DNA of 64,000 nt from Trichuris trichiura. Its lineage: Eukaryota > Nematoda > Enoplea > Trichinellida > Trichuridae. The notes under the pieces were generated by a model, which was not told where the DNA came from, did not search any database, and saw nothing but the letters and a program-made list of their open reading frames with translations. Positions 3,001 through 41,512 of the stretch are shown here, in pieces. Positions within the stretch are counted from its first letter, which is position 1; every line of letters starts with the position of its first letter. The translations under genes and the position numbers were made by a program. The stretch lies in contig JBAJFE010000062.1 of the NCBI GenBank assembly GCA_037903355.1, positions 1,116,001 to 1,180,000 of the forward strand, in the 5' to 3' direction.

Positions 3001-3835
3001 GTTAATTTTCGAGTGAATGATATTTTGTAAATGAAGCTTACCTCAATCTTTTCCAAGAGCTTTTCTTTCTGAAAAAATAAGCATGAAAGCGTTTTTAAAC
3101 AGTGTATCAACTGACTATTAACGCAAAAGTGTAAAATGCTGCTCAATTCTATACGTTTAGCCTCCATGCATTCACTCCCTGAAGCAGGGACAACAAACAT
3201 ACTGGAAGCTCGACTATTTCGTTGTAATTTTAAGCTGCACAGTATTAATGATGAGTACATAATCTCAATGACTAGTCATCTATGTAAAAATGCTATCTCG
3301 TATTTTAGGCTTATAACGGGAAAAGGTTCCCCTGCAAGCCCATTTATACTCTTTTTTTCTAAATTCTCGATAACCTGTTTTGTCCTGTACTAACCCCTAA
3401 TCGTTTAAAATTCCAAAAAAACCTTACAAAGAAGTACATTGTCAAAGCCCTGAGCTTCATTAAAACCGATTTGATTTAACATCAGACGTGAACTGTTTTT
3501 TGGAAACTCTGCGTTTCATTCATTTGGACGAGTGAATGAAAGGAACAGAATTCTTTTCCTTTATGCTAATTGGCTGACTAGATTTTTCGGGAACTCTTGT
3601 CTCGACAATATCTTGCCAATCAAGTTTTAGAAAAGTGAAAATAAATGTTTTCATTCACAGTTGCTCTTTGAATGTAAATAAACTTGTGCCAACGACCTCT
3701 AGGATGATGGAACTAAATCACTTTTCATGACGAATGCGATACCAAAAACTGTTTTTATAAGAAGATAATTCTTTTTTATTATTCTTATTTTCAAATGATC
3801 AGTCCTTATTTCTACGTATTTTGGAAATGAACTCT

Positions 3836-3924
<89 letters not shown>

Positions 3925-4093
3925 TCTACTTAATAAATTCTAAGAAGATTCTAGTATGACGTGAAGATCATTTCTGTGCAGGAATTCCTACTTCAGCAAG
4001 TTTTCAATAAACTGAAAAACTGAAGCATGTTACCGTTTGTCCTGTGCCAGTGCTGGCCAAGCATGCAAGCCATAAGATTGTTAGCACTTTCAT
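1..4093 (-). CDS. Modular secreted micro-exon protein, gene 2 (5' part; runs off the left edge)
   Basis: This is the tandem paralogue of the gene starting at 29365. Exons: signal peptide 4034-4093; module 1 B 3042-3068, A-short 2610-2675, C 1944-2093; module 2 B 1122-1148, A 563-754, C 1-99 (incomplete; by comparison with 24151-24297 about 48 bases lie outside the window). Exon order, sizes and phase 0 match gene 1 exactly. The product starts MKVLTILWLACL and ends the signal exon with GQT, as in gene 1. Module 2 A is about 81 percent identical to its counterpart by eye, and module 2 C is nearly identical, whereas module 1 C is far more diverged. The first intron carries a long TC microsatellite and the C-to-B intron a TA-flanked MITE; both are absent from gene 1. 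The remaining modules and the stop lie beyond base 1. Confidence 0.78.
563..1148 (-). other. Gene 2 module 2, B and A exons
   Basis: B 1122-1148 reads RADLLQRIE. A 563-754 (64 codons) starts RFLKPSEAYRR and keeps Cys27, Cys32 and Cys58, with Tyr62, exactly as in gene 1 module 2. The missing fourth Cys therefore predates the gene duplication. The A-C intron is only about 460 bases here against about 780 in gene 1, the difference being mostly the foldback element in gene 1. Confidence 0.8.
1443..1772. mobile_element. TA-flanked MITE (mariner/pogo-like ends), copy 1
   Basis: Starts CAGCTGAAACCCCC and ends with the inverse GGGGGTTCCACTG; flanked by TA on both sides. About 330 bases with no transposase frame. 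A second copy with the same ends is at 36662-36847. TIR plus TA duplication points to a Tc1/mariner/pogo-type non-autonomous element; the superfamily is an inference. Repeated 'gttgac/gtcaac' words fill the interior. Confidence 0.65.
1944..3068 (-). other. Gene 2 module 1 (B, short A, C exons)
   Basis: B 3042-3068 reads KEKLLEKIE. Short A 2610-2675 (22 codons) reads NLLRPSEADERI... then GTAAGA. C 1944-2093 (50 codons) has EDYWSSF, MTLEEAEDTW and ends LQA before GTAAGT. The short A is shared with gene 1 module 1, so the loss of the Cys half also predates the duplication. Confidence 0.78.
3837..3927. repeat. (TC)n microsatellite
   Basis: About 90 bases of nearly pure TC, in intron 1 of gene 2 just after the signal exon. 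Gene 1 has only a few TC units at the matching place (about 29.19 kb), so it expanded after the duplication. Confidence 0.97.
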
Positions 4094-9572: not shown

Positions 9573-9898
9573 TCACACTAATATCTTACGTACTGTTTGG
9601 CATGCCGTCATGCACTTTGTAAATCGATCAGCCGCAATTTCTTGGTGTTTAAGCACTTTCGCGCTGAGTACTGCTTCCAGAAGATCAGCGCATTGTCCGG
9701 TTTGACAGTTTGTGTACTGTTCATGAACTCTGATGTCCAGTTTTTTCTTTAACTCCTTTTCTTCTTTTGTCAGTTTCAGTGTTGTCTGAATCACACATAT
9801 GAGCACACTCTAGCATTTATGCCGTTTCTCTTTCCGTTCTATTAGTTAAATATAATTTCGAATTGACTTACCAATGCGGCTTCATATCTTTCTTCTTC
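9573..9898 (-). other. Gene 1 module 8 (B and terminal A exon)
   Basis: B 9872-9898 reads EEERYEAAL. The last A exon starts at 9785 (TTLKLTKEEK), carries CX4C and CX3C (CMTAC), and reads through to TGA at 9573 with the tail QTVRKILV. A donor-like GTACGT lies at the position where earlier A exons are spliced. Splicing there to a later AG would give a slightly different short tail, so the exact C-terminus is uncertain. No C exon follows. Confidence 0.68.
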
Positions 9899-12800
9899 CT
9901 AAAATAATACGAGTCAGCAGCCTGCTAACAACAGTTTACTCGATTCTTTCCAAATCTGTACTAAAAGGCCATGGATTATAAATTGAATGTTAAGTATTGT
10001 AATGTATTTCGCATTAGATTGTTTGCTCACTAATCCAGCAAACCTATGTGATCTGAGAGACTTCGTAAGGAGGCTTTCTTAGCATGAAGCATAAGGTTTT
10101 GTCGCAGCTATTCAATACCCATGTCAAGCAAGAACAGACTGGATAACCATCTTCCTTCTCTGACATTAAGGTCCTTCATGTGTAGATCAGTAATTTAGGC
10201 TCCTTAGTTCTATTTGAGTTAAACCTGCACGTACATGAGCCATCTTTGTTATCTTTGTTAGTGTATTCATGTCAGGGCCTTGCGCTACACATTGTTCATC
10301 ATCTAAATAGTTATGAGGAACCTAGAAGAATTCGTTGCAGTGTCAAATTCATATTGACATGCCTAGTCCGACATCAGTTCAGACGTGTGCGTATACCAAC
10401 AGTATTTTCATTTTGCGTAGTGCATTTTTAATGAATCTAGCACCCTCTGCGGCTTCTCTCATTATTTGTGGGCGAAAACCCAGTAACTTAAGTTAAATGG
10501 TGGATAGCCTAGGCGTGCAGTTTTCTTTCCATGGTTTTCACGAATGCTGGATGATCGTTTATAAGAAGACAGACAACACGTTGTTTAGAAGCCTAGCTGT
10601 CCTTGTTTAATCGTGAATGTGATAATTACCCTGACATAGATTTTTTTAAAAATGAAGTGTGCTTACCTCTTCTAACAGCTCATAATTAGCTCTGACATTT
10701 GTCCAGTAAGCTATGGCATCTTTAAATGATTTTGCTTTAGATGCTGTGTACTCCTGCCAGGAATTGCGTTTCCTTCTAACTTCGTCTCGTAGACCGTATA
10801 ACTTCTGCTCCTGAAAATAAAAACTATGCTTTTGTACAGATTCCTCGTCTGAAACGTTCTGTCCTGCATTTATTTTGGGTAGTAAGGCGCATGTTAATAA
10901 GTTGTCACCTTTTCTGTGATGAGTTTAGAAGCCCTACTTCACAAAACGAAAGCGCGCTTATGAATACGTTCGATGGAATGCCTTCTTACCATTTTAGTTT
11001 CGTTCATACAATGGCTGTATGTGTCCAACAATCTGTAGAACTGTTCAACTGTTTCATCACTTCCTCCGTTCTTTTTGACTGCTTCTCTGCATTTTTTCCC
11101 AGTTTCAATCATTCTGTTGCTCAGTTCTTTGTTTAGTTTTTCATGAGCTGCTGTTGGCTTTAATATGCGCTGTAAGCAACAGAACGCATTACGCTTGTTT
11201 TAAAGCTCAGGGCATGCGAGGTGAGCTTGTATTGATTTCCTTTCATTTATATCAGAAAAGCGTACATGTGTTGGGAAAAAACTGTGTGCTTTACTTTAGC
11301 TTTTTCTCATAATTCTTCCCTATCATGGCTTCTCGTCAAGTCAGTCAGTTCAGTTTCTTACGGGAACATAATTTAAGCAGGCGTATTGGACAGTCTTTTC
11401 AGACAGACTGACCTTATGACTCAAAAATTTAAATGTGTAAGTGAAAGTTTCAATGCTTTGTTGTCTAGCGTGATTCTACTAAATAGTGACTATGTCTATT
11501 GCTGGTAGTATGAATTTAGCAGACGATATTCAACAAGATAGGTCGTACCTCAAGCTTTTCCAGTTGCAGTTGTTCCTGAAAAAATAATCACAGTAATAAA
11601 TTGAAGCGTTCTTCATTAATAAAAATTTCAAAGCTCATTACAAATTGCGTTTCCAATAAATCACTACAAAAATGCTAAACCATTTCACGCTGCTACAGGT
11701 GAATTGCATTATTAAAATTCCTCAGTGACTAACGCAATTGCATTGTTGCACCTTTCCATCCATGTGAACATTTGCACCTGCGTCACTGATTTCTACAGTT
11801 CAGGATTGCTGTTGCCCCTTTTTACGCTTACTACGCTGAAGGTTCTTCAAACCGTTCATAGCTGTGCTTAACCCTCTTTGCTGCGCTCAACTCTCAGGAT
11901 AGCGGAACGAATCCTATTGAAAGTGTTTTCCTGTGCCATTGTTGAAGTGATGAACGCATATGTGACAGCATTTCAGTCCCTATACTTCGATTGGCCTTTG
12001 AAATTTTCCTAAGTTTGAAAACATGTAGACGTATTAGTGAGCTTCAACTAATGGTATGTTTTCAAGGTTGCCCTTCAGCACAACGAGCAGTCTTTGTCAC
12101 ATTATAACTTAATTTTTCAGATTCGCTCGTGTAGATAATTCTCCTTCCAACCAATATGTAATTTATAAATTTTTGATCCACCAATAATTGTTGCTGAGAA
12201 TATTTTCCTTCTGAGGGGTTTAAATTTTTGCATTGGGCATTTACTGCACGATTCCTTCTGTCAGTCGATTTTTTTTATCAATTAACACTATCACTTTCAT
12301 TTATGACTCTGAGCCTGTATGAAAAGTTTCCAATGTCAAGCTGTTCTCTGAAAGCTTGACTTTATTACAGAAGGTAACGAAGGCACAAAGTGCTCCTTTT
12401 AAAAACGTTTTCGACATTGGGAGCATTCAAAACAGGTCCAGCATTATACATAATCCCAAAGAAAGCCGCAACCTGATGTCTGTCCACAGTTTCGTTTATA
12501 TATCTGTATGACCCCCTAGAGATACTTTATGCTGTGAACGTTGCTATGTTCTTCTTGCTGGCTGGGCTGAATGTTCAAGGCGTCACTCCGCCGATAAATA
12601 AGTTTCCCCTTTTTCATGCTCTATCGACCAGAAAGCCTCACAACTTAACATTTATGAAATAAAAGTTATTTTAAAGAACGGTTTGTATACCGTAAAACAT
12701 TTTTACAAGAAACGTTTACTACGCGCACCTGTTAAGAAAGAAGAAAGAAAAGAAAAGGAAAAAAGAAAAATTAAGTACGTTGTGCTTTCCCTATTCTCAT

Positions 12801-15800
12801 AAACGAAAACAGCATATTACTACTTATCGAAAAACCTAATTCCTTAGCTTTGGCTTGCATTTCATTCCACATTATAACCATACTGCTGCGATAAAGTTTT
12901 AGCAAGCAGAGTACGGTAACTAATCATCCATCATCATGGTTCAGATATGCTGTTCTGACGCTTAATGTCATCCTTACGTCGCTCCTATTAAAACCTTATT
13001 TTTCTAGCTCGAACGTGTGTTACTCCATATCGATGCAGCTCAAGCGCTTTCCGATAAAATCAAGTGTTTCCTGAATGCTTGGCTGTTCGTTTTAATGTTG
13101 TAAATTTATGTTTTTAATTTTATACTTGTTGTAAAATATGTTTACCTCTTCCGTCACTTTAAAGTGAACTTTGATTTCTGTCCAGTACTTTAGAGCATCT
13201 TCGACAGTTTTTGTTTTTCTCACTTCATTGAATTTACTCCAATATACGCTTTTCTTTTCAAGTTCTTCGAATTTGGCGTATGAATATTGCTCCTTCTAAA
13301 AATCAGAATTTCATGTTCACTGTGGACTAAGTCATCTGTTAAATGTTTTGTCTCTAGTTCTTTGTATGGCAGAAAGGCTGTTTCCTGCCCTAACACTACG
13401 CGCGGTCTGAGGTTTGCTACTTCAGCGTTTCATCATTATATTTCTTTTCCTAATTATACAATACAATTTAATTTGTTTTGACCTTTTTTGCTGCTGCAAT
13501 TCGTTAAGAATGCGAAATGCCTCGACAGCTACAGCTTCGTCAACTCAGGATGTCACGAAATTTTTGACTTCCTCCGTAGCAACACCTCTGCATCATAGCG
13601 AATTTCGTGTCACTCTTAGTTCTTTTCTAGCTCACGTTAAGTGGCCAACTTGACATAAAATGCAGCACACCATAAGATAGCATTATGCGCATTGATTTGT
13701 GAATATAATGGCTTCTTATCAAGCTGTCATACAAGCTGTTTTCCATTACTCTGTGACTTTACGTTTCCTCTGTTTGTTTTGAAAATAAGTTCATTAAGCT
13801 AATAAGTCCATCCTTCAGTTACTATCTTACCTCTCTGCATTGTTTCATGCATTCATCGAATGTTTGTGTCCTCGTCTCTCCTTCCGTTGGCTCTTCTAAT
13901 AGTGCTTGGCAGTCTTCCGTGCTGCATGTTTCTTCTGTTTCCTTTATTCGAATTTCCAGTTCATGTTGCAAACGTAGGTCAGCCACAGAAGGTTCCAAAA
14001 TGCACTGGAAATAGGCAAACGCTATCTGCAAATATTACTGCGTGCTTCAGCCTATTTAATTTTCTAACGTAGTTAACTGAAATGCCTAGCTTCTCATAAT
14101 GGCTTTATAAGGCTTCATACATGGTTCGCTCATCGGAATAGCCAGGTTGATAAAGCAGAAGAAATGTTTTATTGTCCTAGCTTTTAGAAGCATGTCATTC
14201 CCATAGTCATCCAGAGGACTAATTAATTTGTTGTCATTTGTTTTGCTAATGACAGGCCAGAGTTAGTCAGGAAATCTACGGAAGGAAAGTATCGCCCCTT
14301 CTTTCAGCAGACGGTTTATTCCATAATTAAACCATGCATGAATTAATTAGACACTGAAAACAAAACTTACAAAGAAAGTAAAGGTTAGCTTTACCTTACA
14401 TTTACATGAAGTGTGTAACTTAAGTTGACCAAAAATTTAACTAGTATGATCAGCTCGATTTACGGGGAAAAGTCTACTTCTATAATACGACATGGTGTTT
14501 TTACAATCTATTGATGTAATCTGACGTTGCATCTAGGTAAGGTAAGTATATTTACTGTATTAGCAGACACATGTGACGTTTTATCGTTTGTTATCAGGTG
14601 CTCCTGAACCTACAGATGTCTGGTATTTTACTGTTGGAAAGATGTTTAGGTAATTCTTACCTGAATTCTGTCCAGTTGTTGACGTTCCTGCAAACACGAG
14701 CGTGAGATTAATTTTAAAATCACAAATCTTAATAGAAAACAAATGCAAAAGCGTTACAGCAAAAATCTTGAATAATTTATTATCTCAAGCGAAATTTGAG
14801 AATTGTGTTAATCCTATCCGCGCTGAAGGAAAGACTTCAATCAGTAATATCTGGCTAATATTAGAATGCTTTCTACTTTCCCGGACAAGCTGATCTCTTG
14901 TTCCTTCCTTTCTTAAGAAAGCCCCTCAAAACAGCATATTCTTTAACTACGTTCCGGCATCTCCAGTGAACAAACGCACTTTCAGTTTTTGCTTCATTCC
15001 TTAATCCTGCTTACGCCATTAATCAGAGCAATTTTGAGGAAAACTTGCAGTCTCCCACAGTAGAAATATTCGACGCTCCGTGGAAATGTTTCAAAGTATA
15101 CATGCCAAAATTGACAAGAAATCTTTCACTACGCTTTACGCACTTCAATATGCTACTGAATCCTTTCCAGTGACATTTCGTTTGTGGCGTTATGCAAGCA
15201 ACAATAGTCGTACTCATCGAATCTGGCACTTGAAATCTTTTTTTAGTTTAGTGTACTACAATTAATTACCTTCTGAACAGCAGAGTATTTGCTAGTCGTA
15301 ACTTATTGATAATCAGTGCACGGCTGAGGCACCTATAAATTTGTAAGGGTATTTTTGCGCTTTCGTTTAACCTGCTGATTATGAAGCGTGGTACCACGTA
15401 ATTTATGTCTCTGCTCAATTCTATAATTACCGGGCGACCACATGCCTTCACTGCCGTTTCACCGCTGCTGTTATCTGTTTTTTGTGCGTTACCTCTAGAT
15501 TCAAAGTTCTTTTCAAATCCAACTCTGAACGTGTACCTATATCTAAGACAGCATTGAGTCAACGTAGAACCGGTTAACAGTTACGGTGAATTGCTCTCAT
15601 GAGCAGACCTTCGCTGTCCGGTTCGGCGTTAAATCTTTTGCTTATTAATCTCGACATACACATGGTTAAGATTTGCGAATGACCCTGCACAATGAAATGG
15701 GACCACAACTCAGGAACCGTTTGTATTCTTAAATAATTTGTGCGTATTCCTAAACTATATTTCTCACCACGCTTTCTGAATAGGCGCACGAAAGCGGACC

Positions 15801-18800
15801 GAACGGTGATCATTGCTTCTCCGCGCCCTCTCACTTACGTGACAATCTGAACTTATGTGGTAACACTTTTTTCTTTTCCTGTAATCGTTGTGCTTGGACC
15901 AGCAAAAGTTAACTCGGAAATTTCGCGTGCCTACCATTTAAGCCTTACTCACACGGGGGCACTCTTAGTATGTGATCAAGCATTACGTCTTTCCGTGAAA
16001 GATTGTACGTTCTATGAAGTATTAACTTTCTCTGTTGTATTCAGCCTGCACTGAACAATTAAGACGTGTAAACGAAGCTTCAACATAATTTCGTAGCACC
16101 AAGAACTTGCCTCCGTCAGTAGTTGTAGCTCGCCTTTAATTTCTGCCATAAAGGTTCCTGCTTCTTCAAACGTCATTCTTTCCTTCTTTAGTTTGAAGGA
16201 ATTCCAATACGAGAGCTTCATGTTCAGTTCATCCAACAGATCTAATGATCCCTGAGCGTCCTGAAAGTTTTCAATTTTATTTTGCCAGAATTACGCCCTT
16301 GTAAAACGCTTCTCGGCGATTGCCTTAGAAATGTGACAGTGAAAATACCAACTTATCTATGTCTGTTTAACTTTTCATACTTCACCCCTTAATTGCTGTG
16401 TAGCTAGAATCAAATTTTTATTCTTTAAAAGTTTAACTAGTCTAATTATGCACTCAGCTCCCTTCCATAGCTTCCGTAGTGACATTTTAAATGCATCTCT
16501 TATATTTGAGCTTCCAACTACTCAGAACGACTAAATAGTTTCTATCCCGTTTGCCGCAAAGGGTAGCTTCCATAAATACCATGAAACATAAAATAACGTT
16601 TTTCCTGATAGTCTTGCCTAACGCAGTGAGTTTGATTGCAAATATTTAAAATTAATGTCGGTGTTATTCATTGCTTTGGATGTCCGCTATCATTTCCAAC
16701 GTTAATCGACGTAAAATAAATTATTCGCTGACTATTCATCTTACCCGTGTGCATTCCTCCATGCACTGATCGTATAGTAACATAATCTTTTTCAACTTTT
16801 CATATTTGACTTCGTTTTCTACTTTTTTTCGTAAGTTTTTGCAGATTCCTTTTTTGCACTCGTTCTGTGCTGTATTAATGCGCTGTTGCAGTTCTTTTCG
16901 TCTTCGTTGGTCTGCCTGTGACGGTTTCAAGAAACGCTGGAAAATACCACACGTTACTGTACGTGACCTCTAACTAGAGTGAGTGAGAAGTGCGTGTACT
17001 GAGCTTTTCTCAACCTGAAGGGATTGATTGGAGAACATGCACTTGACGGTGAACCATAGCACCTGATGACGTCTACCTACTTTGGAGGTTTCCAAGTGAA
17101 AACGTTTTTTGGATATTAAATTAGTCTGTTAGTTTATCCTGCTAACTTTGGCTATTCCAATCTTTCCAGTTAAGCGTATATACGGTTACAGTCTTAGTGC
17201 GTCCTCTAGGAAACCATAAGGAATCCATTCTTTTTTGACTGACTAGCTCCGTGAAATCATTTGAAGGATGTCTTGTAAGCGGTACTTACCTCAATCTCTT
17301 CCAGAGTATTGTCCCTCTGAAAAAACATGCATTAAAGTATTTATCATTTCAGGTTAGCTCATGATTAAAACAAAAAAATAATTAAAATGCTACTTATGGC
17401 ATCTACCGATTATTTCCCAAATCTCAACATTGTTCTTAACCTCATTTTTTTATCTTCCTTTGCGACTTCTGTCATGTAAGCCTGAGCAGTCCTGTTGAGG
17501 TAATTTTAGCAAGTTAATTATTCCCTTTCTCTCAAATTAAAGAGTTTCGTAACCTCTGATTATTTATATATCTTAGTTTATTAAATCATTGATGAACCGT
17601 TGTTCTGTCATTATGCAAATGTTTCTGCATAACTTACGAGGGTTTGTTGTTCCCTGCCCTTCTATGTACTTTCTAAAATAGTTCATGTAGGCAGACGTCT
17701 TTTTACCAGTGTTTTTCCGTGTCCTATCCCCTATGTGCCTCCTCGTGTTGTTTTACCTGTATGAATAAGTGAGCTATGCATCTCTTTACCGAATTGTTGC
17801 AGTCACTCTATTTTTCAACCAACATTGCTGGTATTACCGTCTGCAATCTTCTTATGTTCTGCCAGTGCAGTTCTCGTAGGCTTTCGCCCGTTGGCACCGT
17901 GACTTCGTTGCAGTGTGATTAAATTATTGACATTCCTTCTCATTATCCTTATATTGAAGCAACTGAAAATTAGGTCTGATATTCCTTACTTTCACCGTTA
18001 AAATTTTCATTTTTAGGATGATTAACTAGTGAATGATTAGCAATGCATTTTACAGTCGTATACATCAATGAAATCCTAGCTGTAATACTTTGTCCTGCAT
18101 TTTGACTGGTCCGTTTTGGAAGGTTAGTGCAGCTTCTATTCATAAACAGCTTCACCCCATAGCGAGCTTACCGCTTCCAGTAGTGGTGATGCACCAATCA
18201 TTCCTCGCCATACCCATTCGGCCGCTATGTATTTCGTTGTGTCCCTCTGTGATTGGTAGTTTCTCCATTGGTCATACTTCGTCTCAACTTCGAATAGTTG
18301 ATGGGCATCCATCCACTCATCCCGCTGAAAGTCTCATTGTCACATTCGCCTAACTGACTCTTTCTAAACCGTTAGTTCGTGCGGCTCCTTCGCTGAGCTT
18401 TCAGTGAGGTTCATAAGAAGTTCTGTATTTAATCGTATTAATCTTGTTGCTTCAGCCTCTATGCACTGTAGTGCCTTTATTAAACTTTCATTATTGAAAA
18501 TGGTTACTGGACCTAACGCCATATCCGTTATTGTCAGTAACAGTGTTCTAAACGTTTCTCTTATATCATAGCTTCAGCGTAATTAGAAACACTCAGTAAT
18601 TCCTATTCTCCTTGTCTCATCAAGGAGACGATATAAACGGCGTAAAGCATAAGACAGCTTCTGTCTGTCCCAAGTTGTGAGTAATGACATTAGTGCACTC
18701 GGCTACGGAAGTGAGGTTGATCCCAATCTAACTTAATGCAAGCGATTTATGATTTCCCTTCAGGTGTTCACCAGTATAATAAGCCTACTGCATTTTTTAA

Positions 18801-21800
18801 ACGTAAGCAATTTGACATTGAGAGGAACGAAATGTGTGCTGAAAGAACCATCTTACCACTTCGCATTCATCTAAACAATCGGCGTGTAGTGTTACCAGTG
18901 CAGCGAACGCAGACCTATTGTGCTTTACAACTCCAGTCCACTCGTCTAGTAAATCTTGGCAGGCTTGTCTATCGCACTGGTTTTCTTCTTGAAAGAGGCG
19001 TGCTTGTCGTTTTTCCAGTGTTAGTTGGTCTGCTTCTGATGGTGTTTCTATACGCTGGAAACCAGTGAACGTGCGTTGTATGTACAGCGATGCTTAGAGC
19101 AAGCGAGAGTTGAGTTTAAAAGGAGAACTTGAATTTGACTGTTGATGTGGAACAACTGTGGACGGTCAGTTTGTTTATTAAGCTTGCGCTGCTTTAAAGA
19201 ACTTAATATTCAGTCACTACATTGTGGCCTATTCTCCTAGTGTACTCTACTGTGGCGTTTCAGTCCATTAAAAACGCAATTACAATATCCGAGCTTTTGC
19301 TGCGAAACTCTGCACAAGCTATTTCTTTTAGATTGACTAATTATGTGAACTCATGCAAACAGTATCTTGAAAGCGGCACTTACTTCAATTTTTTCCATGA
19401 GTTCTTGTATCTGAAAAAGTAAAGATTATAACATTCTTTTTCCGTTGACAGTTGGAGCTCTTATTAATTCATGTTTTTATTTTCCGGAACTTTAAGGATT
19501 CTCATAACTTTCTCCTTTGTTAAAAATGGAAGTGCATTCTTTGCCTGAACTCGGAGCTCAAGTTTTAAGTTAACTCAAAGCTTCCTGCTAAATTCTCTTC
19601 TTGGGAATTAAAGTTATTGCGGTCTTCAGTTTCCTATGACATAATAATAGAAAGTACCCTAAACCATTGGTCATACGTGTCCGCCTAGTAGCTACGCTGT
19701 ACCTTCGATTCTCTATTGGTGGTATTACGCCATTAAAAAACGCTTCCTTCGCTTTTGTGACATTCAGCTCCCTTTGACGGCGCAAAGGCGTAAGATGTAG
19801 GACGAAAGTGCGCTCTTAGGCATACTCAACTACTGCCTAGCTCGTTTGATTTATCTTTTCAGCTGGTTCGAGAGTGTGCCACTCCTCTGCATCTCTCAGT
19901 AAAACCCTCTGGACAGCTTCCTACTTTGCTGCACCAATAATCTTTCCAAAATGGTTTTTCCACTTCCTCCTATCAAAAATGTTATGCACTTACGATTAAC
20001 CTTTTAAGCAGTTTCTGGATTCACGTTCAACGCCACGTTAACCTTGTCGCTTCAATAGTTTATACCTCAGCTAAAGCAAGCTTTCTAAAATATTCAAAAT
20101 TTCAATGTTCCACCTAACCTTCTCGTTTCCTCTCCAAACCCTGCATGTCGCCAGATCAACAGTGGGAGTTCCGTAAAGAGAGGCTCAGAAATTTGGTTAT
20201 TTTCAGTTAACTCTACCCCTCATGACGCTGCGTGACAACTTCGTTGTATAGCCACTGTTGTACAGCCTACATTGCAAGTGGCGGATTTATGCTCACCAGA
20301 GTTCCTAGTTGCAGATGTCAGTTGATCTGCCAACTATTCCTTTAAAATAACTGTAATAAAGTTCTGCCGCAGTTGGTTCGACGGATAGTATGCGTATCTA
20401 CCTCAATACAAGGTATCCCGCAGTACCTCTGCTCCCAGCATGACTTATTATTAATAGTCATAGGTTACGACAGACCTACACACATAAACTGTTATTTTCT
20501 GGGTGCCAGCATGTTAGCGATTTCTCTTGTAGTCGTCAGTGGGGGGTAGTGTGATACAAGTTTGAATATCTTGATTTCCTTTTTCTAATAAGTTACTTCG
20601 CTCGTTCTTTCAATATATTACAATTTATTTTTCTGGGCTAGAAGTTATTCATCGGCCATAATTTGTGAATGGTTTGTCCACAGGCGGCGTTTATTTTGTT
20701 CCGATTTTTTTGTACTTTCTTTAATTTATTATTTGTAGCTACAGCATTAATAAATTGACACCTGTTCAGGGACCTCTTACAACGGTGCCTAAATAACCTA
20801 CTCTTGTTCTTCAGACCTCTGTACCATCTCTGAAGTGGCTGCGGCACAGATTCTTCACCTGAGCGAAGATGAGTAAGTTGTCCAAGTTTACAAAACTGCC
20901 GTACTATCTTTAATGGAACGAAGTTCACTAGTACGAACCCCTCTCCAACACGTTTAGGTTTTGATAACTCGGCCGCGCTGAGTTTCGCACGATATCAAAC
21001 TATATTTCATTTCCACCTTAATCAGCTATTTTCATTTCTTGATATTCTTGAGCTGTCACTAGTACTGAATATTGAGTGGTGAAATTTCGAATGTTTTCCC
21101 ACAGAATACACTACCGCTCTACTGATCGCCTTATTCAACGATTAATAGTAGACCTGTGCAGTTATTCAGTGAAAAATCTAACACTTTCATTTTTGTCACT
21201 ACCGTTTCTTTTTACTATGTAAACGCGCCCTAGCATAACTTTTTATGGGAGCGGGGGCTTACCTCTACCAGTTGCGGCAGCACGCTCTTCATGTGTAACC
21301 AAAAAGCTATTTCCAGCATTGATAAATTACTACTAGCTGTGTGTTACAACAGACGCATACGCGCCAGAGTGTTACTATCTGATGATGATAATGTGATATA
21401 AGTTTGATTATCCTGATTCACATGTTTTAATATGTTACTTCGTTTGTTCTCTCATTATTGTTACAAGTTCGCTTTTCTGAACTGTAGATTACTCATTCGC
21501 CAAAACTTGTGAATGATTGATCCACAAGCGGCGTTGATTTTGTTCTGATCTTTTCTTACGTTCTCTTAGGCTATTGGTCATGACTTACAGCATTCATAAA
21601 TTGACATCTGTTCAGGGATGTCTTAAAACTTTGCCTAAATAACCTACGTAGCTCTCTTGTCTTCTTCAGCTCTGTGTACCTCCTCTGAACTCCCAACCTT
21701 TTACAAAATTGTGGTAGCATCTCTAATCGCGCGAAGTTTGCTACGAACCCCTCTCCAACACGATTATATTTCGATAACATGGCAGCGCTGAGTTTTGCAA

Positions 21801-24800
21801 GATATCAGGCTGTATTTCATTTCCACCTATTTTTATTTCTTGATATTCTTGAGCTGTCGCTGGTACTGAATATTGAATGGTGAAATTTAGAACGCCTTCC
21901 CACAGAAGACTCTACCCCTTTGCTGATCGTTCTATTGGGCGATTGATAGTAGACCTCTACAACTGTTCGGTGAAAAATCTAACACTTTTTTTTTATCGTG
22001 ACTGTTTCTTTTTACAGTGAAAAATGCGCCCTAGCATAACTTTTTATGGGAGCGCGGGCTTACCTCTACCAGTTGCGGCAGCAAGCTCTTCATGTGTAAC
22101 CAAAAAGCTTTAGTTTCTTCGTATGTCGCTTCTTCAACCACTTTTGATACGAGACTGTAGTAATGCCACTTATAGTCCAATTCGGTTAGCAGACTGGAGA
22201 GGCTCTGGTTCTCCTAAAAAATTGAATACCATGTCTACCTGGCTCAGGCCTTTTTAGCGCTATTTCTTGTGATTATTCTTCGTGGCTCACAGTGAACGCT
22301 AGCTCTTTAGTGTTTAATTCTTTTAATTTTATCATTTATACAATTTGTTACTACTTATTCTTGATTCAGATTTTTGCCCTTTAGAACTTTTACTATTAAT
22401 TCTACTAGTTCTAAAGCGAGTTCAATAGATGTTATTGTAAGTAATTCCAATCATACGTCCCTTTAATGTGCTAAGAAAGACTCAGTGACTCGTTTTCTCA
22501 TTGTCTGTTGTTAAACAATGCGAATGGATCTCTAGATGAAATAGCTTTTTTCCCACTAACTTAAATATTTATACTGGCTGTGAAGTTTGTCTTAATGGAA
22601 ATAAACGCTAATCGTTTGATCTATTCTAGCCCTTGTTCATGCTGTTTCTTCGCAATGCTTTCTGCTTTTTCCAACTTTATGCCGTTTGAAATAAATTATT
22701 AAATGAAGAGCGATTTCTTACCCCCTTTTGAATGGTGAGTTCCAATTCGTACCGTGTCATTCTGTCTGCTGGTACTGGTCGCAACAAACGCTTAAAGCAA
22801 GTGTAGCTTGTAGCATACAGTGGGCAAGAAGGGCGAATGCTCAAGTTTTCTCATTGGTCTTGCGTGTGAAAACGTTTGGTTTGACCTTCACTAAAGCTCC
22901 TACGACGACAGTCGGACACTCACTGTAATCTGCGTTGCATTGATGAATGCTTATTTCAGTCAATATTTTAGTAAAAAAGTGCATTTTTACGAATGACCTT
23001 TGTCGCTTTTGCGATTGAGTAAATATGCGGGCAAAAGTTGGGAAGTTCTGCTGCGAATATTGGGAGACCTATTCCTTGCTTTGATTAGTGTTGTGAAGTC
23101 ATGCAGACGTTATCTCGTAAAATATACCTACCTCAATCTTTTCCAGTAGCTCTTCTCTCTGAAAAAGTAAGCACGATAACACTGACAAATTGAAGTTGGC
23201 TGTGAGTTATCTTAATTGATAAAATGTTATCTTCTAAGTCTCGACATGTTAGCAACCTCATGTCTTGCCTTCTTTTCATCGGTTCTTGTTGCAGAACACA
23301 AAGCGCCAAGACTTCCATTCATTGAACTGTTTACTGATACAAGCGAGTATATGATGAAGGAAAGACTTATTAGTGGGGAATACAAGGATTCCTTAAATAG
23401 CGCGTGATGTCCTTAGTAGCGAACTTCACGAGTTTACTTAGGCGCGAGCTTACAATCGGTTAGCATCTGAGGGATCACATGACCCGTTCAATGCTGACCC
23501 AACGCTGGTCATTGCACTGACTAGGCGGCGACTGCGAGTGGCTTAGCTCATGTGATCCTTCAGGGCGGCCTTCAGGCAGAGCATCGTCTCTCTTTGCTCC
23601 GAAGATTTCCACCCACCCGCTGGCACTTCTACAGTTCTTCAGCTCCACAAGCTTTTATGGCAACTGATCTCTTTTGTTGAGTACAGAAAATATATACGAG
23701 ACGTTTTTCAGGAGGCGTCTTTTCCCGTATCCGGAAAGCCCCGTCTGTATATTTTCTGCACACATTAAGGCGAATCACACATGACTTTATGTATGAAAAT
23801 AGCAATCTGTGTATGCCAGTTTAAAGTGGCACCTATTTAGTCAAATTCTTTCTCATTTTCATTATGTTACTGTGGGTAGTTCCGTCCGGATTATTATAAT
23901 ATGCAAAAGCTTTCTATTCAGTCATATTAATATAATTAAGTGTCTTAATGATCTACTTTTCACTTAACCTAAGTTATTAACAATTACTGGACAGGCGGCC
24001 TTGAAGTCGCGCTCATCCTTCTGCATTTACTTTGATGTTGTAGACTACTATAAAAAACATTATTAATAAATAAATGTCTCCATATGCCATGCTCCGTAAA
24101 TGTTCCCAAGTCAGTTATAGACGAAAGATTATATTGGACGGTGAGCTTACCGGTAGGAGCAGCGGTAACGCAGTTGTAATTTCTAACCATAAAGCTTTTG
24201 CTTCTGAGTACGTCATTCTTTCTTTCACTAATTGGAAAGGAATCCAGTACTGCTGTTTCATGTCGAGTTGTTCCAACATATCGAATGTGTGCTGTTCCTG
24301 AAAATTTAAAGTTCCATTCTTGCGCGTTTCATCCTTTCCAGGAACCCTTCTTCTCTGACTATTTCGCAAGACCCATGATAGGGCTCGTCAATTAAGTCAC
24401 CTTTAATCCATTTAATTCTGACTTTACCGTCCACTGATCTGTGGTTCGACTCAAATGCTCATTCTTCAGAGGCTTCCTCAGAGCTTGTTATATAATCAAT
24501 TCTGTTCCTAGTTTTGTTAACGGTGTTCTGAATGTTTCTGTTTGCATGCTTTGAGATATTCAGTAGTTCTCAAAAATATAGCTCTTTGCTACGGCACTGT
24601 ATGTTTTCATTTAATTGTTTCTTCTTACGGAATCTGTCCCGTTTTCAGCATACAACTATTTATTGACCGTTGCTTTTGAGCTGCGCGTGACCCATCCTCA
24701 GCGATATTAAATTAATATAGACATTAATTAAGTGCCGCTAAGGACGGATCACGTGCGGCTCAAAATCTACGGTCAATAAATAGTTTTATACTGAAAACGG

Positions 24801-27800
24801 AACACATTCCGTGGGAAGAAACAGTTATTCAGTAGCTCTTTTCTGTTTGCTGGAAAATATGGCCGACACGAATACCTTGTATTAATAACATGGAACATTG
24901 TTTTTCCTGCTCACTTAAGCTTTCCGTACGTTTGATGAGCGGAGTGACGGAGCGACGTTGCTCTTCATGCAAATTATCACAACTCCTTTACAATACGCAT
25001 GCAATGATTTATTTCTCTGAGCATTCTGGTTTTTTCCATCTGAAATAAATCGTTCATTGAGGAGCCGCCTTACCTTTTTGTATTGTTCAATGCAATCATT
25101 GTGCAAAGTGATCAGCACACTCATATTCTTGTGTGGGCCTTTTTTTCCTGGATTTTCCCATAAATCTTGGCATGTTTTTTGCTCACACGTTTTTTCTGCA
25201 TTCCTAACGCGTTCTTCCAATTCTTCACGTATTCGCCGATATGCCTCGCTTGGTTTCAAAAAGCGCTGGAAATAAGCAAGCATAGCACCCGTTATGCGAA
25301 CAGTCCAATAGCACAGAGTGATTAAACGGTCAGACAATGAGGTTTTAGCTTTCTTTACATGTTTAGAATATCAGCCGACTGTGCAAGATAATATTTACAG
25401 AAAAATCGCGTTAGAAATCCAAGCTTTCACGTGTTGTTACTACGCCTGTCTTCAGGAGCTTTTGGTGAATAAAGTCTTGCGCTCCATGAATGTTTATGGT
25501 CCCATTTAGGAATGTTAGGTTTTCAATGTAACCGACTGGCAGGGAATAACTCAGAGCGTCTTTAGACGTTCACCTAATTATTTTGCTCTGTTTCTTTCTA
25601 CGCTGTGAAAAGTTTAGTTCGGCGGCATTGTACCACTGCTTATTCTCTTGGCTCTTTGTCTTGCCGCTTTTCTTTCGAGCGAATTGATAACTACATCTTT
25701 TGATTGTTCGATAGGATACCTGCGAAAATCCATTCTTTTTTTGCAAATCAGCAGTGTGAAGTTATGCAGGGGATAATTTCCAAACGATACTTACTTCAAT
25801 CCTTGCCAGCAGCTCTGTTCTCTGAAAAAATATGCATGTTAGCTGTGATAAGTTTTGAATGGCTGAGAGTCGGAATGAACGCAAATTGTTATTCTCTTGG
25901 TGCCAGCAACATACTGATCTTACTATTAATTGCCTTTTGTGGTTATAGGGGGATATACGCATCAGTAGGTATAGCCGTATTAATTTGGTTACGTCAATCC
26001 GTCTTATTCTCTCAATCTGTTCTGCACGATAGCTTTTCGCACATTGTTAATTATTATTAAATAGAGTCCAGTAGCGATACTTTTCAATCTTGCTTCAATT
26101 ACTCGCAATGAATCACGAGGCAAATAAATGCAAGTACGTACTCTGCGTTCTTATTAGTGTTCGTAAATAAATTCTCAACGTTTGCCGTGTGTGTGCACCT
26201 GTGAACCCCTTCAGAAGCAGCGCGCGCAGGTTGGGGTTCCACTGGTCAGTGCCATTCTGCACGATGTTACTTATCTGGTACTGTAAATGAAACAACTGCT
26301 AAGAAGAGGAGTTCGATCCAGACCTTGAAGGTTCCTGAAGCTGCCTCATAAGCGTGGTATGCAGTATGCGTTTACACAGCATGCTGTCCACCAGGTAGCG
26401 TAGATGATAAATTATGGTACGATCTCTTTGAGTTACCAGCGGATCATAAGGCGTCACGTGACGTGCAGTACTTATCGCAGGGTCACTGACATCATCCCTT
26501 CAGCTTTGTTAGTTGTCGATGACCCCACTTGAATAATGTTTCCTAGCTTCGTCTTCGTGTGAAAACGTTGAAGTAGCGAAAAAGAGGTTAGTATCGACTC
26601 GCTAATTTTTAGGGTCTCAGGACCCATTCGTCCCCATCACCGATTGTCCCTTACTCATTCTTCATGGGCTAGTGCACACGTCTTCTCGTTTTACTGTAAG
26701 TCGCCCGCTATAGCGACAGATATTCACATGCTATTAAAAACTTATTCCTCAGTATACGCCTTTGATGGAAATGCTGTCAAACCTTCGCTACAAAAAGTTC
26801 CTATAAGATTACCCTGTTTTTTCGTTTCATGGTTAGATTCAGCGCAGTAAAAATCGGCTCTCAAATTTCTTATGGCTGATTTTGTTGTTTCTATCTTATT
26901 AGTCTCAGAGTCTTACTAAACAGTTAAGCACCACTTATTCTAACGAAGAATTTCAACCTTTCAGTAATGTACTGATGCTTTGTTTTTGTATTCTAGCTGT
27001 TTTTTTTGAAATGTTAAAGCTTCTACAACGTCTTGCCGTTCGGGCGCATAGCTTACCGCTCGCAGTGTTGGAAGTATGTATGATATTCGTGACCACCATG
27101 TTTCAGACTCTTCCAGTGACATGTTTTTTCCCATAGCTTCGAAGGCAGCCCATTCGTGTTTCTTCCCCTCCAGTTCTTGCAGTTGATACGTTAGGCCCAC
27201 ATCACCCTGAAAATTTTACTTTTTGTTCTAGCCGGTTCACATTTCTCTTCAGCGCTTTTCAGGCGGTCATTTTGCAAGCGTTACAGTGACGCTCACTACT
27301 CTCTTTATTTATTTTAATATTTTGTGCTCATGTTTTATCGCTGCTTGGCTATGATAAAGCATTCACGCTTCAGTGCTTTTTCTAGTGCTAGTTTATACTC
27401 ATTTTTGGGTTCGACTGTCTTAATGATGTTCTTAATCTTTCTCTTATTTTCTGACTTCCCCTCACTGAGAACAATCCATTGTTTCTTTTTCTGTTAATCT
27501 GCTCAGATAGCTGACATAAGTGCAGCTGTACCTGAAATAACATCTTTCCTACGTATTTAAAATCAGGTACTGCGGCCCCTGCACTACTGGCTAATGAAGT
27601 GACGGCAACATTTGCGCACAATTGTTTAAAATTCACCTGCTACTCTTTTTATTCGATGCAGTCTCCTGTTATTTTCAATTTTATGTCACACAATAAAGGA
27701 AACGAGGAAAATTAGGACTGGAAAATTAGGACGTCAAGAAATTAAGATTTCGAAAAATGCTTCAAGCCGTAGCACCTAACCATTCAGCTATTGCAATTTT

Positions 27801-29365
27801 GCTTATCCACCCCCAGACTATGTAACTGATCTGACCTACCCTACCATTCACTATCCTCACTGCACATAAGTCCTGTAGTTGTGATCGTTGGAAACGGAGT
27901 ATGCTGTGCTGAGAAAGCTTCAAAGCTTGAAATCCGTGCAATTATAAAATAAACCGTTTGTAGCTTCCATAACGAACAAACTTGTAAAATTTTAAGCGGT
28001 TTGAGAAAATTCTTTCTTGAGGAATCGTCTTACCATTTGATCAAGGCGCTGTTCTAATTCTTCTCGTGTCCTTTCGTCCGCTTCGCATGGTTTCAAGAGA
28101 TTCTGGAAAGAAATGAAAGCGCTCTGTAAGTTTGTCAAAGCATAGGATGGGCAACACTAGCGGGTTGCCTAACGTTTCTGTTTTCATATGGGTTTGGAAA
28201 GAGAACAGAGGACTGACAGTGAACATAGACTAACTTTGCATATTCAACTACTCGATTTAACTTGATCTGATGGTGGAGAATTTTCGTTAGTCATTATTTC
28301 AACACTATTGCTTATTCTGCTGACGTTGTCTCCTCTTACCATTCAGTCCAGCAATCGAAAGCGCATATGAAGCTATTAATTTCCACGTGAACGATATTTT
28401 GCAAGCGAAACTTACCTCAACCTGTTCCAAGAGTTCTTCTCTCTGAAGAAATAAATATGAAAGAGTTTTTAAGTTGTCTACAACTGATAATTAACGCAAA
28501 ACGTAAAATGCTTTTGGAATGCGTGCGCTCTCCCTTTGTATTTTTATTCCCTGAAGGAGGGACGAAAAAAAATTGGGAACTGGATTATTTCGTTAAATCT
28601 TTAAGCCACAAATTTTTTATGACTATGGGCATCATTAATGATTAGTCATCTGTGTAAAAGCAATCTCGTAGTTTATACGTATGATGGAGAAGATTTTCCG
28701 TAAAACCTTTTGTACCCCTCCCTTTTTAGAAAGCCAATAAACAGTTTCATCCTGTACCAATGTTTCATACTATAAAATTCAAGGAAAACGTTACGAAGAA
28801 CTACGTTTTGTAAATCTTGAGCTACAGTGAAACTGATTTGCTATAGTTTCAGACGCGAATTGCCTTTGGAAAACTGCGTTGGTCCATTGAACGGAGCGGA
28901 ATATTCCCTTTCATACTGAACGGCTGACTAAACTTTTTTGTAACTCGTCCGCCAGCAGCGCATTATCATTCAAAAGAGAAAAAAGGGAAAATGAAAGTTT
29001 TTGTTCCGGAACGCTCTTTGAATAGAAGGAAACTTAAATTAACACCTGCGATTTTTGTTATCATGAGTGTACAGTAGTTTTTATGAGAGGGACACTTCAT
29101 ATCGCTTTTTAAGCAGAGGGCTGTTTTATAGCTATGTTAAGAGAACCCGTTCAGAACTTTACGACTTTTGAAAAAAAATAAAAATTGCTCTCTCTCCCCT
29201 GTTTTAAATTTCTAAGAATAATCTAGTGTAACATGAAGATCATTTCTTTGCAAGAATTCCTACTCAGGCGAGTTTTCAATAGAGCAAAAAACTGAAACAT
29301 AATACCGTTTGTCCTGTGGTAGTCCATGCCAAGCATGTAAGCCATATGATTGCTATCGCTTTCAT
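9573..29365 (-). CDS. Modular secreted micro-exon protein, gene 1 (24 exons, about 868 aa, unrecognised family)
   Basis: I do not recognise this family. Exons (plus coordinates, read right to left): 29306-29365 signal peptide; then trios B/A/C at 28416-28442, 28034-28102, 27057-27206; 25795-25821, 25074-25265, 24151-24297; 23132-23158, 22722-22790, 22064-22213; 19384-19410, 18857-19054, 18172-18324; 17290-17316, 16745-16936, 16111-16260; 14661-14687, 13831-14004, 13146-13295; 11549-11575, 10990-11169, 10667-10810; then 9872-9898 and terminal 9573-9785. Every exon is a multiple of three, every intron is phase 0, and the chain stays open for 868 codons. The signal peptide implies export through the ER. 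Composition is Glu/Lys/Arg/Leu-rich with no other membrane segment, so I infer a soluble, largely helical repeat protein with disulfide-bonded hairpins. Alternative splicing without frame loss would be possible. Exon borders rest on splice motifs and repeat periodicity, not on transcripts. Confidence 0.8.
10667..11575 (-). other. Gene 1 module 7 (B, A, C exons)
   Basis: B 11549-11575 reads EQLQLEKLE. A 10990-11169 (60 codons) starts RILKPTAAHE; it keeps Cys27 and the first Cys of the CX3C pair, but the second Cys of both pairs is gone. C 10667-10810 (48 codons) has NSWQEY and AIAYW and ends LLEE before GTAAGC. Confidence 0.76.
13146..14687 (-). other. Gene 1 module 6 (B, A, C exons)
   Basis: B 14661-14687 reads ERQQLDRIQ. 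A 13831-14004 (58 codons) starts CILEPSVADL, with CX4C at 27/32 and CX3C at 52/56; the linker between the Cys pairs is shorter than in other modules. C 13146-13295 (50 codons) has SVYWSKF and DALKYW and ends VTEE before GTAAAC. Confidence 0.77.
16111..17316 (-). other. Gene 1 module 5 (B, A, C exons; C has a GC donor)
   Basis: B 17290-17316 reads RDNTLEEIE. A 16745-16936 (64 codons) starts RFLKPSQADQRR with Cys27, 32, 58 and 62. C 16111-16260 (50 codons) has KLSYWNSF and MTFEEAG and ends LLTE. It is followed by GCAAGT instead of GTAAGT, an apparent GC-AG intron, the only non-GT donor in the array. Confidence 0.76.
18172..19410 (-). other. Gene 1 module 4 (B, A, C exons)
   Basis: B 19384-19410 reads IQELMEKIE. 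A 18857-19054 (66 codons) starts RIETPSEADQ and has all four cysteines: CX4C at residues 27 and 32, CX3C at 60 and 64. C 18172-18324 (51 codons) has KYDQWRNY and a second Trp, and ends LLEA before GTAAGC. The C exon was too short to be visible as a long open frame but matches the family in size, phase and Trp spacing. Confidence 0.78.
20530..22111. repeat. Diverged tandem duplication (about 800 bp x 2)
   Basis: Segment 20530-21308 aligns with 21375-22111 (for example ccctctccaacacg ... gcgctgagttt in both, and gggcttacctctaccagttg at both right ends). The duplication carries the last 46 bases of a C exon with its donor: functional at 22064, orphaned at 21263-21308. Related minus-strand frames ending SLNRCQF occur in both copies; coding status unknown. 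Confidence 0.75.
21263..21308 (-). pseudogene. Orphan 3' fragment of a C exon
   Basis: Forty-six bases match the 3' end of C exon 22064-22213, including the GTAAGC donor, then the match stops abruptly. It has no acceptor and no 5' half, so it cannot be spliced as a normal C exon. It arose with the local 800-bp duplication. Confidence 0.65.
22064..23158 (-). other. Gene 1 module 3 (B, short A, C exons)
   Basis: B 23132-23158 reads REELLEKIE. Short A 22722-22790 reads RLLRPVPADRMTR and ends IQKG at GTAAGA after 23 codons, again without the Cys half. C 22064-22213 (50 codons) contains DYKWHYY and, 22 residues later, AFW; it ends LVE before GTAAGC. The 3' end of this C exon is duplicated 801 bases downstream at 21263-21308. 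Confidence 0.75.
23682..23760. repeat. Hairpin-forming inverted repeat
   Basis: GTACAGAAAATATATACGAG at the left pairs imperfectly with the inverse of GTCTGTATATTTTCTGCAC at the right around a short loop. It sits at the end of a GC-richer tract (23.42-23.66 kb) that itself has matching 'gatcacatga' and 'tcatgtgatc' words. Possibly the end of a degraded MITE; intronic, between modules 2 and 3 of gene 1. Confidence 0.45.
24151..25821 (-). other. Gene 1 module 2 (B, A, C exons)
   Basis: B 25795-25821 reads RTELLARIE. A 25074-25265 (64 codons) starts RFLKPSEAYRR and has Cys27, Cys32 and Cys58, with Tyr where other copies have Cys62. C 24151-24297 (49 codons) has DMKQQYWIPF, then MTYSEAKALW. This is the best conserved module between the two paralogues. 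The A-C intron hosts a foldback element (24612-24828) that is absent from gene 2. Confidence 0.82.
24612..24828. mobile_element. Foldback MITE in the module 2 intron of gene 1
   Basis: The left arm (tgtttcttcttacggaat ... aactatttattgaccgt ... gagctgcgcgtgacc) is the inverse of the right arm (ggatcacgtgcggctc ... acggtcaataaatagtt ... gaagaaaca), with the turn near 24720. The equivalent intron of gene 2 lacks it, so it inserted after the gene duplication. No coding capacity. Confidence 0.72.
27057..28442 (-). other. Gene 1 module 1 (B, short A, C exons)
   Basis: B 28416-28442 reads REELLEQVE. Short A 28034-28102 reads NLLKPCEADERT... and stops after 23 codons at a GTAAGA donor, so it lacks the Cys-bearing half of a full A exon. 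C 27057-27206 (50 codons) ends LPTLRA before GTAAGC and has EWAAF followed 22 residues later by WW. The interval 27207-28033 contains no clear second half of A; a weak frame near 27.4-27.55 kb is not convincing. Confidence 0.72.
29306..29365 (-). other. Signal-peptide exon of gene 1
   Basis: Sixty bases encode 20 residues beginning MKAIAIIWLTCL and ending TTTGQT, followed by donor GTATTA. A short Lys-containing n-region, a hydrophobic core and small residues before GQT fit a classical ER signal peptide. The counterpart at 4034-4093 encodes MKVLTILWLACL...GTGQT with donor GTAACA. This ATG is the natural start because it sits 31-37 bases after a conserved TATATAA and opens the only hydrophobic segment of the protein. 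Confidence 0.82.
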
Positions 29366-29395
29366 AACTAACAAAATCTATGATTATTCTGGCTG

Positions 29396-29402
29396 TTATA
29401 TA
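29396..29402 (-). promoter_or_regulatory. TATA box of gene 1
   Basis: On the minus strand the sequence reads GACTATATAA, about 31 bases before the ATG at 29365. The same 10-mer sits in the same place before gene 2. A TATA box this close to the ATG implies a very short 5' leader. Both genes share flanking bases around the box, so the core promoter was duplicated with the gene. Confidence 0.65.
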
Positions 29403-40700: not shown

Positions 40701-41057
40701 GTTTAGTTTTTCTAAATGTACAATTGGCGCTGTGGTAAGCATACGCCCTAAGTACCTTTAAGGAAGGATTCAGATTGTAAACCCAAGTTGTCAGTCCAAT
40801 TCTGACTTCCTAACACGTCTTGTCCAGTTTGCCGTTCGCTGTCCGTCTGCAGAGCAGGCTTGTTCACGTTTGTGCCTTCTGCGGCAGTATCCGAAGAAGA
40901 AATATCGTAAGTACATACAAAATAAAATCTGGAATTAAGTACCAAGCAAGCTCCCACCTAATGCAGTCGCGTAGAATGACGTATCGTCCGCCTGAGCAGT
41001 ACTTAGCGAAGCGTCCTGCTCAGCGGCCTCGGACAGAGCGCTGAGTAAAGCCTCCAT
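37734..41057 (-). CDS. MCM10: MCM10, replication initiation factor
   Basis: Loads polymerase alpha and activates the CMG helicase at replication forks in the nucleus. Exons (right to left): 40958-41057, 40756-40878, 40619-40711, 40043-40285, 39852-39945, 39644-39800, 39267-39434, 39087-39214, 38849-39028, 38445-38784, 38314-38389, 38163-38257, 37983-38099, 37734-37931. They total 2112 bases, 703 residues plus stop, with all phases joining. Domains in order: acidic N-terminus (MEALLSALSEAAEQ), a short coiled coil (KLNLIIKEIERRKQE), OB-fold (WVTMGVIV, VIWRLTDLRN, SAFLFGN, GTVVALLNV), CCCH zinc finger (CPDYGICKS ... CSNF ... CDFH) followed by HYASKRGELQ, then the C-terminal Cys-rich zinc region (TCKKCDYTW, RFFQCKACGKRTV, CVQC). 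An alternative first exon from 41126 spliced over a 48-base intron is possible. Shorter than the human protein (about 875 residues). Confidence 0.93.

Positions 41058-41372: not shown

Positions 41373-41512
<140 letters not shown>

What the first reader, a model, noticed from the sequence alone, without database searches (positions are those of the whole stretch)
9573..29402. A strictly periodic B-A-C exon array encoding a secreted repeat protein of no family I recognise
Twenty-four exons follow one grammar: signal exon, then (27-bp B, about 192-bp A, about 150-bp C) seven times, then B-A. All exons are multiples of three and all introns are phase 0, so any exon can be skipped, shuffled or duplicated without frameshift. 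This resembles in logic, not in sequence, the micro-exon genes of schistosomes and the nematode polyprotein allergens. It may be a variable secreted effector or structural protein.
Basis: partly seen in the sequence, partly recalled or inferred. Interest (0 to 1): 0.88.

Follow-up and report, generated by a model that had tools for sequence, protein, structure and literature searches.

The report
Whipworm secreted helical-repeat protein gene
This appears to be a large intact gene of the human whipworm (or a very close relative) for an unstudied, probably secreted protein made of eight similar helical units, each spread over three exons; it has sister genes beside it and counterparts in the pig whipworm, and its job is unknown.

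Summary
Two A exons are only 69 bp, as in two sister genes and T. suis. The family forms one cluster (C26:1017-1146 kb); five single-exon searches of the 72.7-Mb genome hit only there. Predicted T. trichiura proteins match two sister genes, mostly at 95-100% per exon; a T. suis protein matches units 1-5 in frame at 68%. Units resemble the same position in sister genes (57%) far more than other positions (26%), so the array is old and fixed, not shuffling. dN/dS is 0.40-0.51. I found no convincing Pfam, PDB-sequence or PDB-fold relative. The model is all-helical, about three helices per unit, with internal exon ends inside helices. Best reading: an undescribed Trichuris secreted family of disulphide-braced helical repeats acting as an intact multivalent extracellular protein (function inferred). 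It fails defining tests of micro-exon genes and polyprotein allergens.

The parts
29396..29402 (-). TATATAA box (within CTATATAA), 37 nt before the ATG
   Evidence: Same 37-nt spacing in sister genes 2, 3 and 4, and 36 nt in the plus-strand gene
29306..29365 (-). Signal exon S, 60 bp, MKAIAIIWLTCLAWTTTGQT; donor GTATTA
   Evidence: intact homologous signal exons in genes 2, 3, 4 and in T. suis P0002. Judged from hydrophobicity and position; no dedicated signal predictor was run
28416..28442 (-). B1, 27 bp
28034..28102 (-). A1, truncated form, 69 bp
   Evidence: also short in genes 2 (66 bp) and 3 (69 bp) and P0002
27057..27206 (-). C1, 150 bp
25795..25821 (-). B2, 27 bp
25074..25265 (-). A2, 192 bp
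24151..24297 (-). C2, 147 bp
23132..23158 (-). B3, 27 bp
22722..22790 (-). A3, truncated form, 69 bp
   Evidence: also short in genes 2 and 3 and P0002
22064..22213 (-). C3, 150 bp
19384..19410 (-). B4, 27 bp
18857..19054 (-). A4, 198 bp
18172..18324 (-). C4, 153 bp (possibly 150 bp, starting at 18321)
   Evidence: one-residue gap to P0002 at its start
17290..17316 (-). B5, 27 bp
16745..16936 (-). A5, 192 bp
16111..16260 (-). C5, 150 bp, GC donor (GCAAGT)
14661..14687 (-). B6, 27 bp
13831..14004 (-). A6, 174 bp
13146..13295 (-). C6, 150 bp
11549..11575 (-). B7, 27 bp, weak donor GTACGA
10990..11169 (-). A7, 180 bp
10667..10810 (-). C7, 144 bp
9872..9898 (-). B8, 27 bp
9594..9785 (-).
   Evidence: T. 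suis models continue into C8
8279..8413 (-).
   Evidence: 60% identity to P0001 residues 1251-1293; sequence; present with a stop in genes 2, 3 and 4
20740..22109 (.). Tandem duplication (copies 801-846 bp apart) reaching from C3 into the following intron; the further copy holds part of C3 (21263-21328) with no splice pair found
   Evidence: Families D2-D5; unbounded C hit at C26:1137263-1137328
1..4093 (-). 5' part of sister gene 2: signal ATG 4093, B1 3042-3068, A1 2610-2675 (66 bp), C1 1944-2093, B2 1122-1148, A2 563-754, C2 from 99 running off the window
   Evidence: C26 coordinates minus 1116000

Best explanation
The locus is one member of a Trichuris family of probably secreted proteins. 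The gene has a TATA-box promoter and a signal exon, then eight in-frame B-A-C exon triplets. The product (906 aa with signal) is predicted to enter the secretory pathway and to remain one chain of eight units, about 120 residues when full. Most full units carry four cysteines in a CX4C ... CX3C pattern that probably forms two disulphides clamping a helical hairpin; in this gene units 1 and 3 lack the clamp, unit 2 has three cysteines, unit 6 five and unit 7 two. Each unit forms about three long helices, and helix 3 runs through the small B exon, so the whole is an extended or stacked helical array. I infer that it works outside the cell as an intact multivalent binding or scaffold protein at the worm-host interface or in body fluid, each position being specialised. 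Shown: gene structure, family, fixed position-specific array, coding constraint, no recognised relative in the libraries searched. Predicted: secretion, helices, disulphides. Inferred: extracellular multivalent binding.
For: Exon model and T. suis agreement. Sister genes with the same order, promoter spacing and similar intron lengths. Single cluster: five single-exon queries gave 16, 16, 19, 13 and 6 matches (E 0.01 or better), all on C26 between 1018 and 1141 kb. Position-specific units: same position 57.5% (36 pairs) against 26.5% (252 pairs) between genes and 26.9% (90 pairs) within a gene; best cross-gene match at the same position 28 of 28. dN/dS 0.40-0.51 in six gene pairs. The published polyprotein-allergen cleavage motif [KR]-X-[KR]-R occurs in 6 of 33 units, within 5 residues of a unit border in none. 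All-helical model, pLDDT 76.0, pTM 0.62.
Against: No RNA, protein or localisation data; secretion rests on a short hydrophobic start. A looser basic motif, [KR]-I-E-R, recurs at the B-A junction in 12 of 33 units (R-X-X-R there in 7 of 33), so regular cleavage inside the array is not excluded. Only one of five models of the better run reached pLDDT 76 (the others 57.1-65.5), and the first run gave 65.0 and pTM 0.35. The model is of the T. suis four-unit protein P0004, which has a 23-residue insertion after B. Absence from T. muris or Trichinella is not shown: two of the three protein searches scored only the best 7994 and 7993 candidates, the third 1005. Function is inference only.
Confidence: 0.55

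Rival explanations
1. A polyprotein: the chain is cut into pieces of about 120 residues, each a small carrier (for example of lipid), in the manner of the nematode polyprotein allergens of other nematode clades.
For: Tandem helical units with cysteines, of similar size, behind a signal exon. [KR]-I-E-R at the B-A junction in 12 of 33 units could be a regular cut site. Published work says polyprotein allergens and FAR proteins are absent from Dorylaimia (PMC12238268, passages), so the role could be filled otherwise.
Against: The published motif [KR]-X-[KR]-R is in only 6 of 33 units. [quoted passage not shown] here three exons per unit and 0-5 Cys and 0-5 Trp. The dominant lipid carrier reported for Trichuris is p43 (PMC12238268, passages).
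Confidence: 0.12
2. A splice-diversified secreted antigen: symmetric exons, the 27-bp B exons above all, are skipped to make many isoforms, as in schistosome micro-exon genes.
For: All exons symmetric. The T. trichiura model P0003 lacks several B exons.
Against: Small exons are easily missed by automatic gene finders (general knowledge), and the T. suis models P0001 and P0002 keep B exons. B exons make up 216 of 2718 coding bases. All 10 internal exon ends of the modelled protein lie inside helices.
Confidence: 0.12
3. A structural protein of the worm itself (gland matrix, cuticle, bacillary band or egg shell), with no action on the host.
For: Long charged helices (15.1% Glu, 11.7% Leu, 9.5% Lys), constrained sequence and fixed order.
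Against: Fast-evolving units 4 and 7 (dN/dS up to 1.03) and a lineage-restricted tandem cluster are commoner in host-facing proteins (general knowledge).
Confidence: 0.21

Closest known systems
Trichuris hypothetical proteins: M514_27457, M514_06427, M513_13694, D918_02817 (T. suis); TTRE_0000135501, TTRE_0000135401 (T. trichiura)
   Same: Same family; P0002 (M514_27457) agrees with units 1-5 in frame at 67.7% identity; the TTRE proteins match exons of sister genes 2 and 3, 15 of 19 listed exons at 95% or more
   Different: Automatic models, some partial or fused, named only hypothetical; several B exons left out in the TTRE models; none of the six identifiers occurs in the main texts of the paper library
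Nematode polyprotein allergens (NPA, ABA-1)
   Same: Secreted tandem helical units of similar size with cysteines
   Different: No regular [KR]-X-[KR]-R motif, usually four cysteines, three exons per unit, no Pfam match (features from passages of PMC3079579)
Schistosome micro-exon genes (MEG)
   Same: Signal exon, symmetric exons
   Different: Most of the coding region is not in very small exons; splicing variation not shown (PMC4350168, passages)
p43 / dorylipophorin of Trichuris
   Same: Secreted protein of Dorylaimia with internal repeats and cysteines
   Different: p43 is very rich in Cys and has a His-rich tail (passages); here 2.6% Cys, 2.0% His and an all-helical model
Spectrin-type three-helix repeats (recalled)
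   Same: About three helices per unit
   Different: Predicted extracellular, cysteine hairpin, no Pfam match at E 10 or below for three family proteins; not among listed fold matches

Membership tests
Schistosome micro-exon genes | Most of the coding region in very small symmetric exons | tested here: not met
   8 of 25 exons are 27 bp, 216 of 2718 coding bases; definition from passages of PMC4350168
Schistosome micro-exon genes | Symmetric exons | tested here: met
   All exons multiples of three, phase-0 junctions
Schistosome micro-exon genes | Alternative splicing that makes protein variants | not testable with these tools
   No transcript reads available
Nematode polyprotein allergens | Regularly spaced basic cleavage motifs ([KR]-X-[KR]-R) | tested here: not met
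   6 of 33 units, none within 5 residues of a unit border; but a looser [KR]-I-E-R recurs at the B-A junction in 12 of 33; motif from passages of PMC3079579
Nematode polyprotein allergens | Very small or no introns in the repeat region | tested here: not met
   Three exons per unit; the 23 introns between B1 and C8 of gene 1 are 86-2653 bp
Nematode polyprotein allergens | One invariant Trp and two invariant Cys per unit | tested here: not met
   0-5 Cys and 0-5 Trp per unit in 33 units
Nematode polyprotein allergens | Sequence match to the family profile | tested here: not met
   Not among Pfam matches at E 10 or below for P0001, P0002, P0004. In the 15-unit scan at E 1 only 25 of 38 families were shown, so that scan alone does not decide
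Dorylipophorin (p43) | Very high Cys content and His-rich tail | tested here: not met
   2.6% Cys, 2.0% His, no His tail; features of p43 from passages of PMC13368735 and PMC12238268
Spectrin repeats | Three-helix repeat | tested here: inconclusive
   About three helices per unit in a model of pLDDT 76.0, pTM 0.62
Spectrin repeats | Sequence match to the family profile | tested here: not met
   Not among Pfam matches at E 10 or below for P0001, P0002, P0004
Spectrin repeats | Fold match to solved spectrin repeats | tested here: inconclusive

The most novel reading that the evidence does not exclude
A whipworm invention: a new class of secreted helical-repeat protein whose 27-bp B micro-exons act as optional register shifters, so that in-frame skipping re-phases the helical array and makes isoforms that present different faces or ligands to the host. 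In logic only, the family would be the Trichuris counterpart of micro-exon genes and of polyprotein carriers.
Probability: 0.1. Interest if true: 0.8.

Novelty: new variant of a known kind. Interest (0 to 1): 0.5.

Why it matters
Human whipworm is given as affecting some 465 million people (abstract of PMC8021180), and about 20 uncharacterised proteins in T. suis secretions appeared specific to Trichuris (PMC6206011, passages). A correct 25-exon model of a large, multi-copy, apparently secreted family that automatic annotation breaks up gives proteomic and diagnostic studies the right sequences to search. If the protein is abundant in secretions it is a new candidate host-interface protein; I found no solved relative of its fold.

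Full report
What was checked. The window is G000:C26:1116001-1180000 of a 72.7-Mb, 62-contig genome. Two predicted T. trichiura proteins match exons of sister genes 2 and 3: of 19 listed exon matches (those of at least 60% identity were printed), 15 are at 95% or more; the others are C1 72.9, C4 75.5 and C6 82.3% of gene 2 and C7 86.3% of gene 3. The organism is therefore T. trichiura or a very close relative, in Dorylaimia.

The gene. On the minus strand the exons read S, then B-A-C eight times. A8 runs from 9785 to 9594 and has a phase-0 donor, and C8 with the stop lies at 8413-8279. C8 was found because P0001 continues past A8; it is present with a stop in genes 1, 2, 3 and 4. The joined product has 906 residues. 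A exons 1 and 3 are 69 bp and lack the cysteine half. The same two positions are short in genes 2 and 3 and in P0002 of T. suis, so this is an old feature.

How firm the exon model is. My boundary search accepted only in-frame splice pairs, so it could not by itself disprove phase 0. Two checks help. Around the ends of 98 family exons, scanned without regard to frame, GTAAG lies at the phase-0 end in 77 and elsewhere within 15 nt only twice, once out of phase; for the acceptor pattern YYYAG the figures are 74 at the phase-0 start and 5 elsewhere, 4 of them out of phase. And P0002, an independent T. suis model, aligns to units 1-5 joined (555 aa) over 554 residues with 67.7% identity and one single-residue gap; it begins with a like signal peptide and B1. 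P0001 covers all eight positions but is a fusion of neighbouring genes and holds short extra stretches that look like retained intron. Between sister genes the substitutions show constraint: dN/dS over all codons is 0.41, 0.51 and 0.40 for gene pairs 1-2, 1-3 and 2-3, and 0.41-0.49 against gene 4; single units range from 0.16 to 1.03, unit 7 of gene 1 being highest. Exons are only a little more alike (77-79%) than the part of the introns and flanks that could be aligned (74-76%; 8606-13627 bases of 16445-19042), so the proteins evolve fast.

The family. In 200 kb (C26:980001-1180000) I find three eight-unit genes, a four-unit gene whose units match positions 5-8, a minus-strand partial gene with two units, and a plus-strand group of five units that may be one or two genes. 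Genes 1-4 share a TATATAA box 37 nt before the ATG, and the plus-strand gene has it at 36 nt. Many intron lengths are similar by position, for example 86, 86, 83 and 86 bp between B8 and A8 in genes 1-4, others differ. Five single-exon queries against the whole genome hit only C26 between 1018 and 1141 kb (16, 16, 19, 13 and 6 matches); the tool scores only the best candidates, so counts are lower bounds.

Static, not shuffling. Of 33 units aligned (gene 5 left out for lack of whole units), the five of the plus-strand gene were set aside for the counts. Same-position units in different genes share 57.5% identity on average (36 pairs, range 36.7-84.1), different positions 26.5% (252 pairs, 10.0-44.4), and units within one gene 26.9% (90 pairs, 9.3-42.7); the best match in another gene is at the same position in 28 of 28. 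The tree groups the units of genes 1-4 by position. The order therefore predates the gene duplications, and agreement with P0002 suggests that it predates the split from T. suis. Phase-0 symmetry is what internal duplication of exon triplets needs, so it is not evidence for ongoing exon skipping. One tandem duplication with copies 801-846 bp apart, after C3, carries only part of a C exon.

Fold and mechanism. The unit consensus has helix 1 after a K-P-S break, a CX4C ... CX3C hairpin, K..YW in the next helix, and W.EI in the last, which runs through B. Prediction of the T. suis four-unit protein P0004 with a 13-row alignment gave an all-helical model, mean pLDDT 76.0 and pTM 0.62; the other four models of that run had 57.1-65.5, and an earlier 4-row run gave 65.0 and 0.35. 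All 10 internal exon ends examined lie inside helices. No solved structure is a convincing neighbour by sequence or fold; this does not prove a new fold, as the model is long and of medium confidence. The cleavage motif of polyprotein allergens is not regular here (6 of 33 units), though [KR]-I-E-R recurs at the B-A junction in 12 of 33. I take the chain to stay whole, with that reservation, and infer an extended, disulphide-braced, multivalent extracellular protein; partners and place of release are unknown.

Compared with what is known. Polyprotein allergens: the published features are regular basic cleavage motifs, very small or no introns in the repeat region, one invariant Trp and two invariant Cys (PMC3079579, passages); none of these was met. 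Micro-exon genes: most of the coding sequence in very small symmetric exons (PMC4350168, passages); here 216 of 2718 coding bases. Dorylipophorin p43: rich in Cys with a His-rich tail (PMC13368735 and PMC12238268, passages); not met. Three protein-database searches gave six family proteins, all from T. suis or T. trichiura; because two of them scored a capped set of candidates, absence from T. muris or Trichinella is not shown. None of the six identifiers occurs in the main texts of the paper library; supplements were not open to me.

Verdict.

Noticed in passing
window 34407-35234 (+): COX15 exons (Pfam COX15-CtaA, E 3.6e-13 and 5.7e-18)
   Followed up: partly
window 37737-38258 (-): Mcm10 zinc-motif coding stretch (E 1.4e-10 and 4e-07)
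   Followed up: partly
window 56996-57418 (+): Cytochrome P450 C-terminal stretch (E 8.6e-33)
   Followed up: partly
window 60402-63575 (both strands): Similar stretches on opposite strands with reverse transcriptase and GIY-YIG matches (the minus-strand RVT_1 piece is below its cut-off), the Penelope-like combination (name recalled). Described only.
   Followed up: partly
window 41350-41893 (+): Long simple A/T trinucleotide-type repeat giving poly-Ile, poly-Leu and poly-Tyr frames; parts of window 41000-42000 match 55 places in the genome
   Followed up: no
window 6441-6653 and C26:1075593-1075727: A short sequence between family genes, with an FGGW motif, that the T. trichiura models P0003 and P0005 carry at one end; a further copy on contig C7
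   Followed up: partly
C26:1049952-1053099 (-) and 1025229-1026090 (+): A partial two-unit family gene and a fifth unit at the end of the plus-strand group; no signal exon was found for either in the pattern searches made
   Followed up: no
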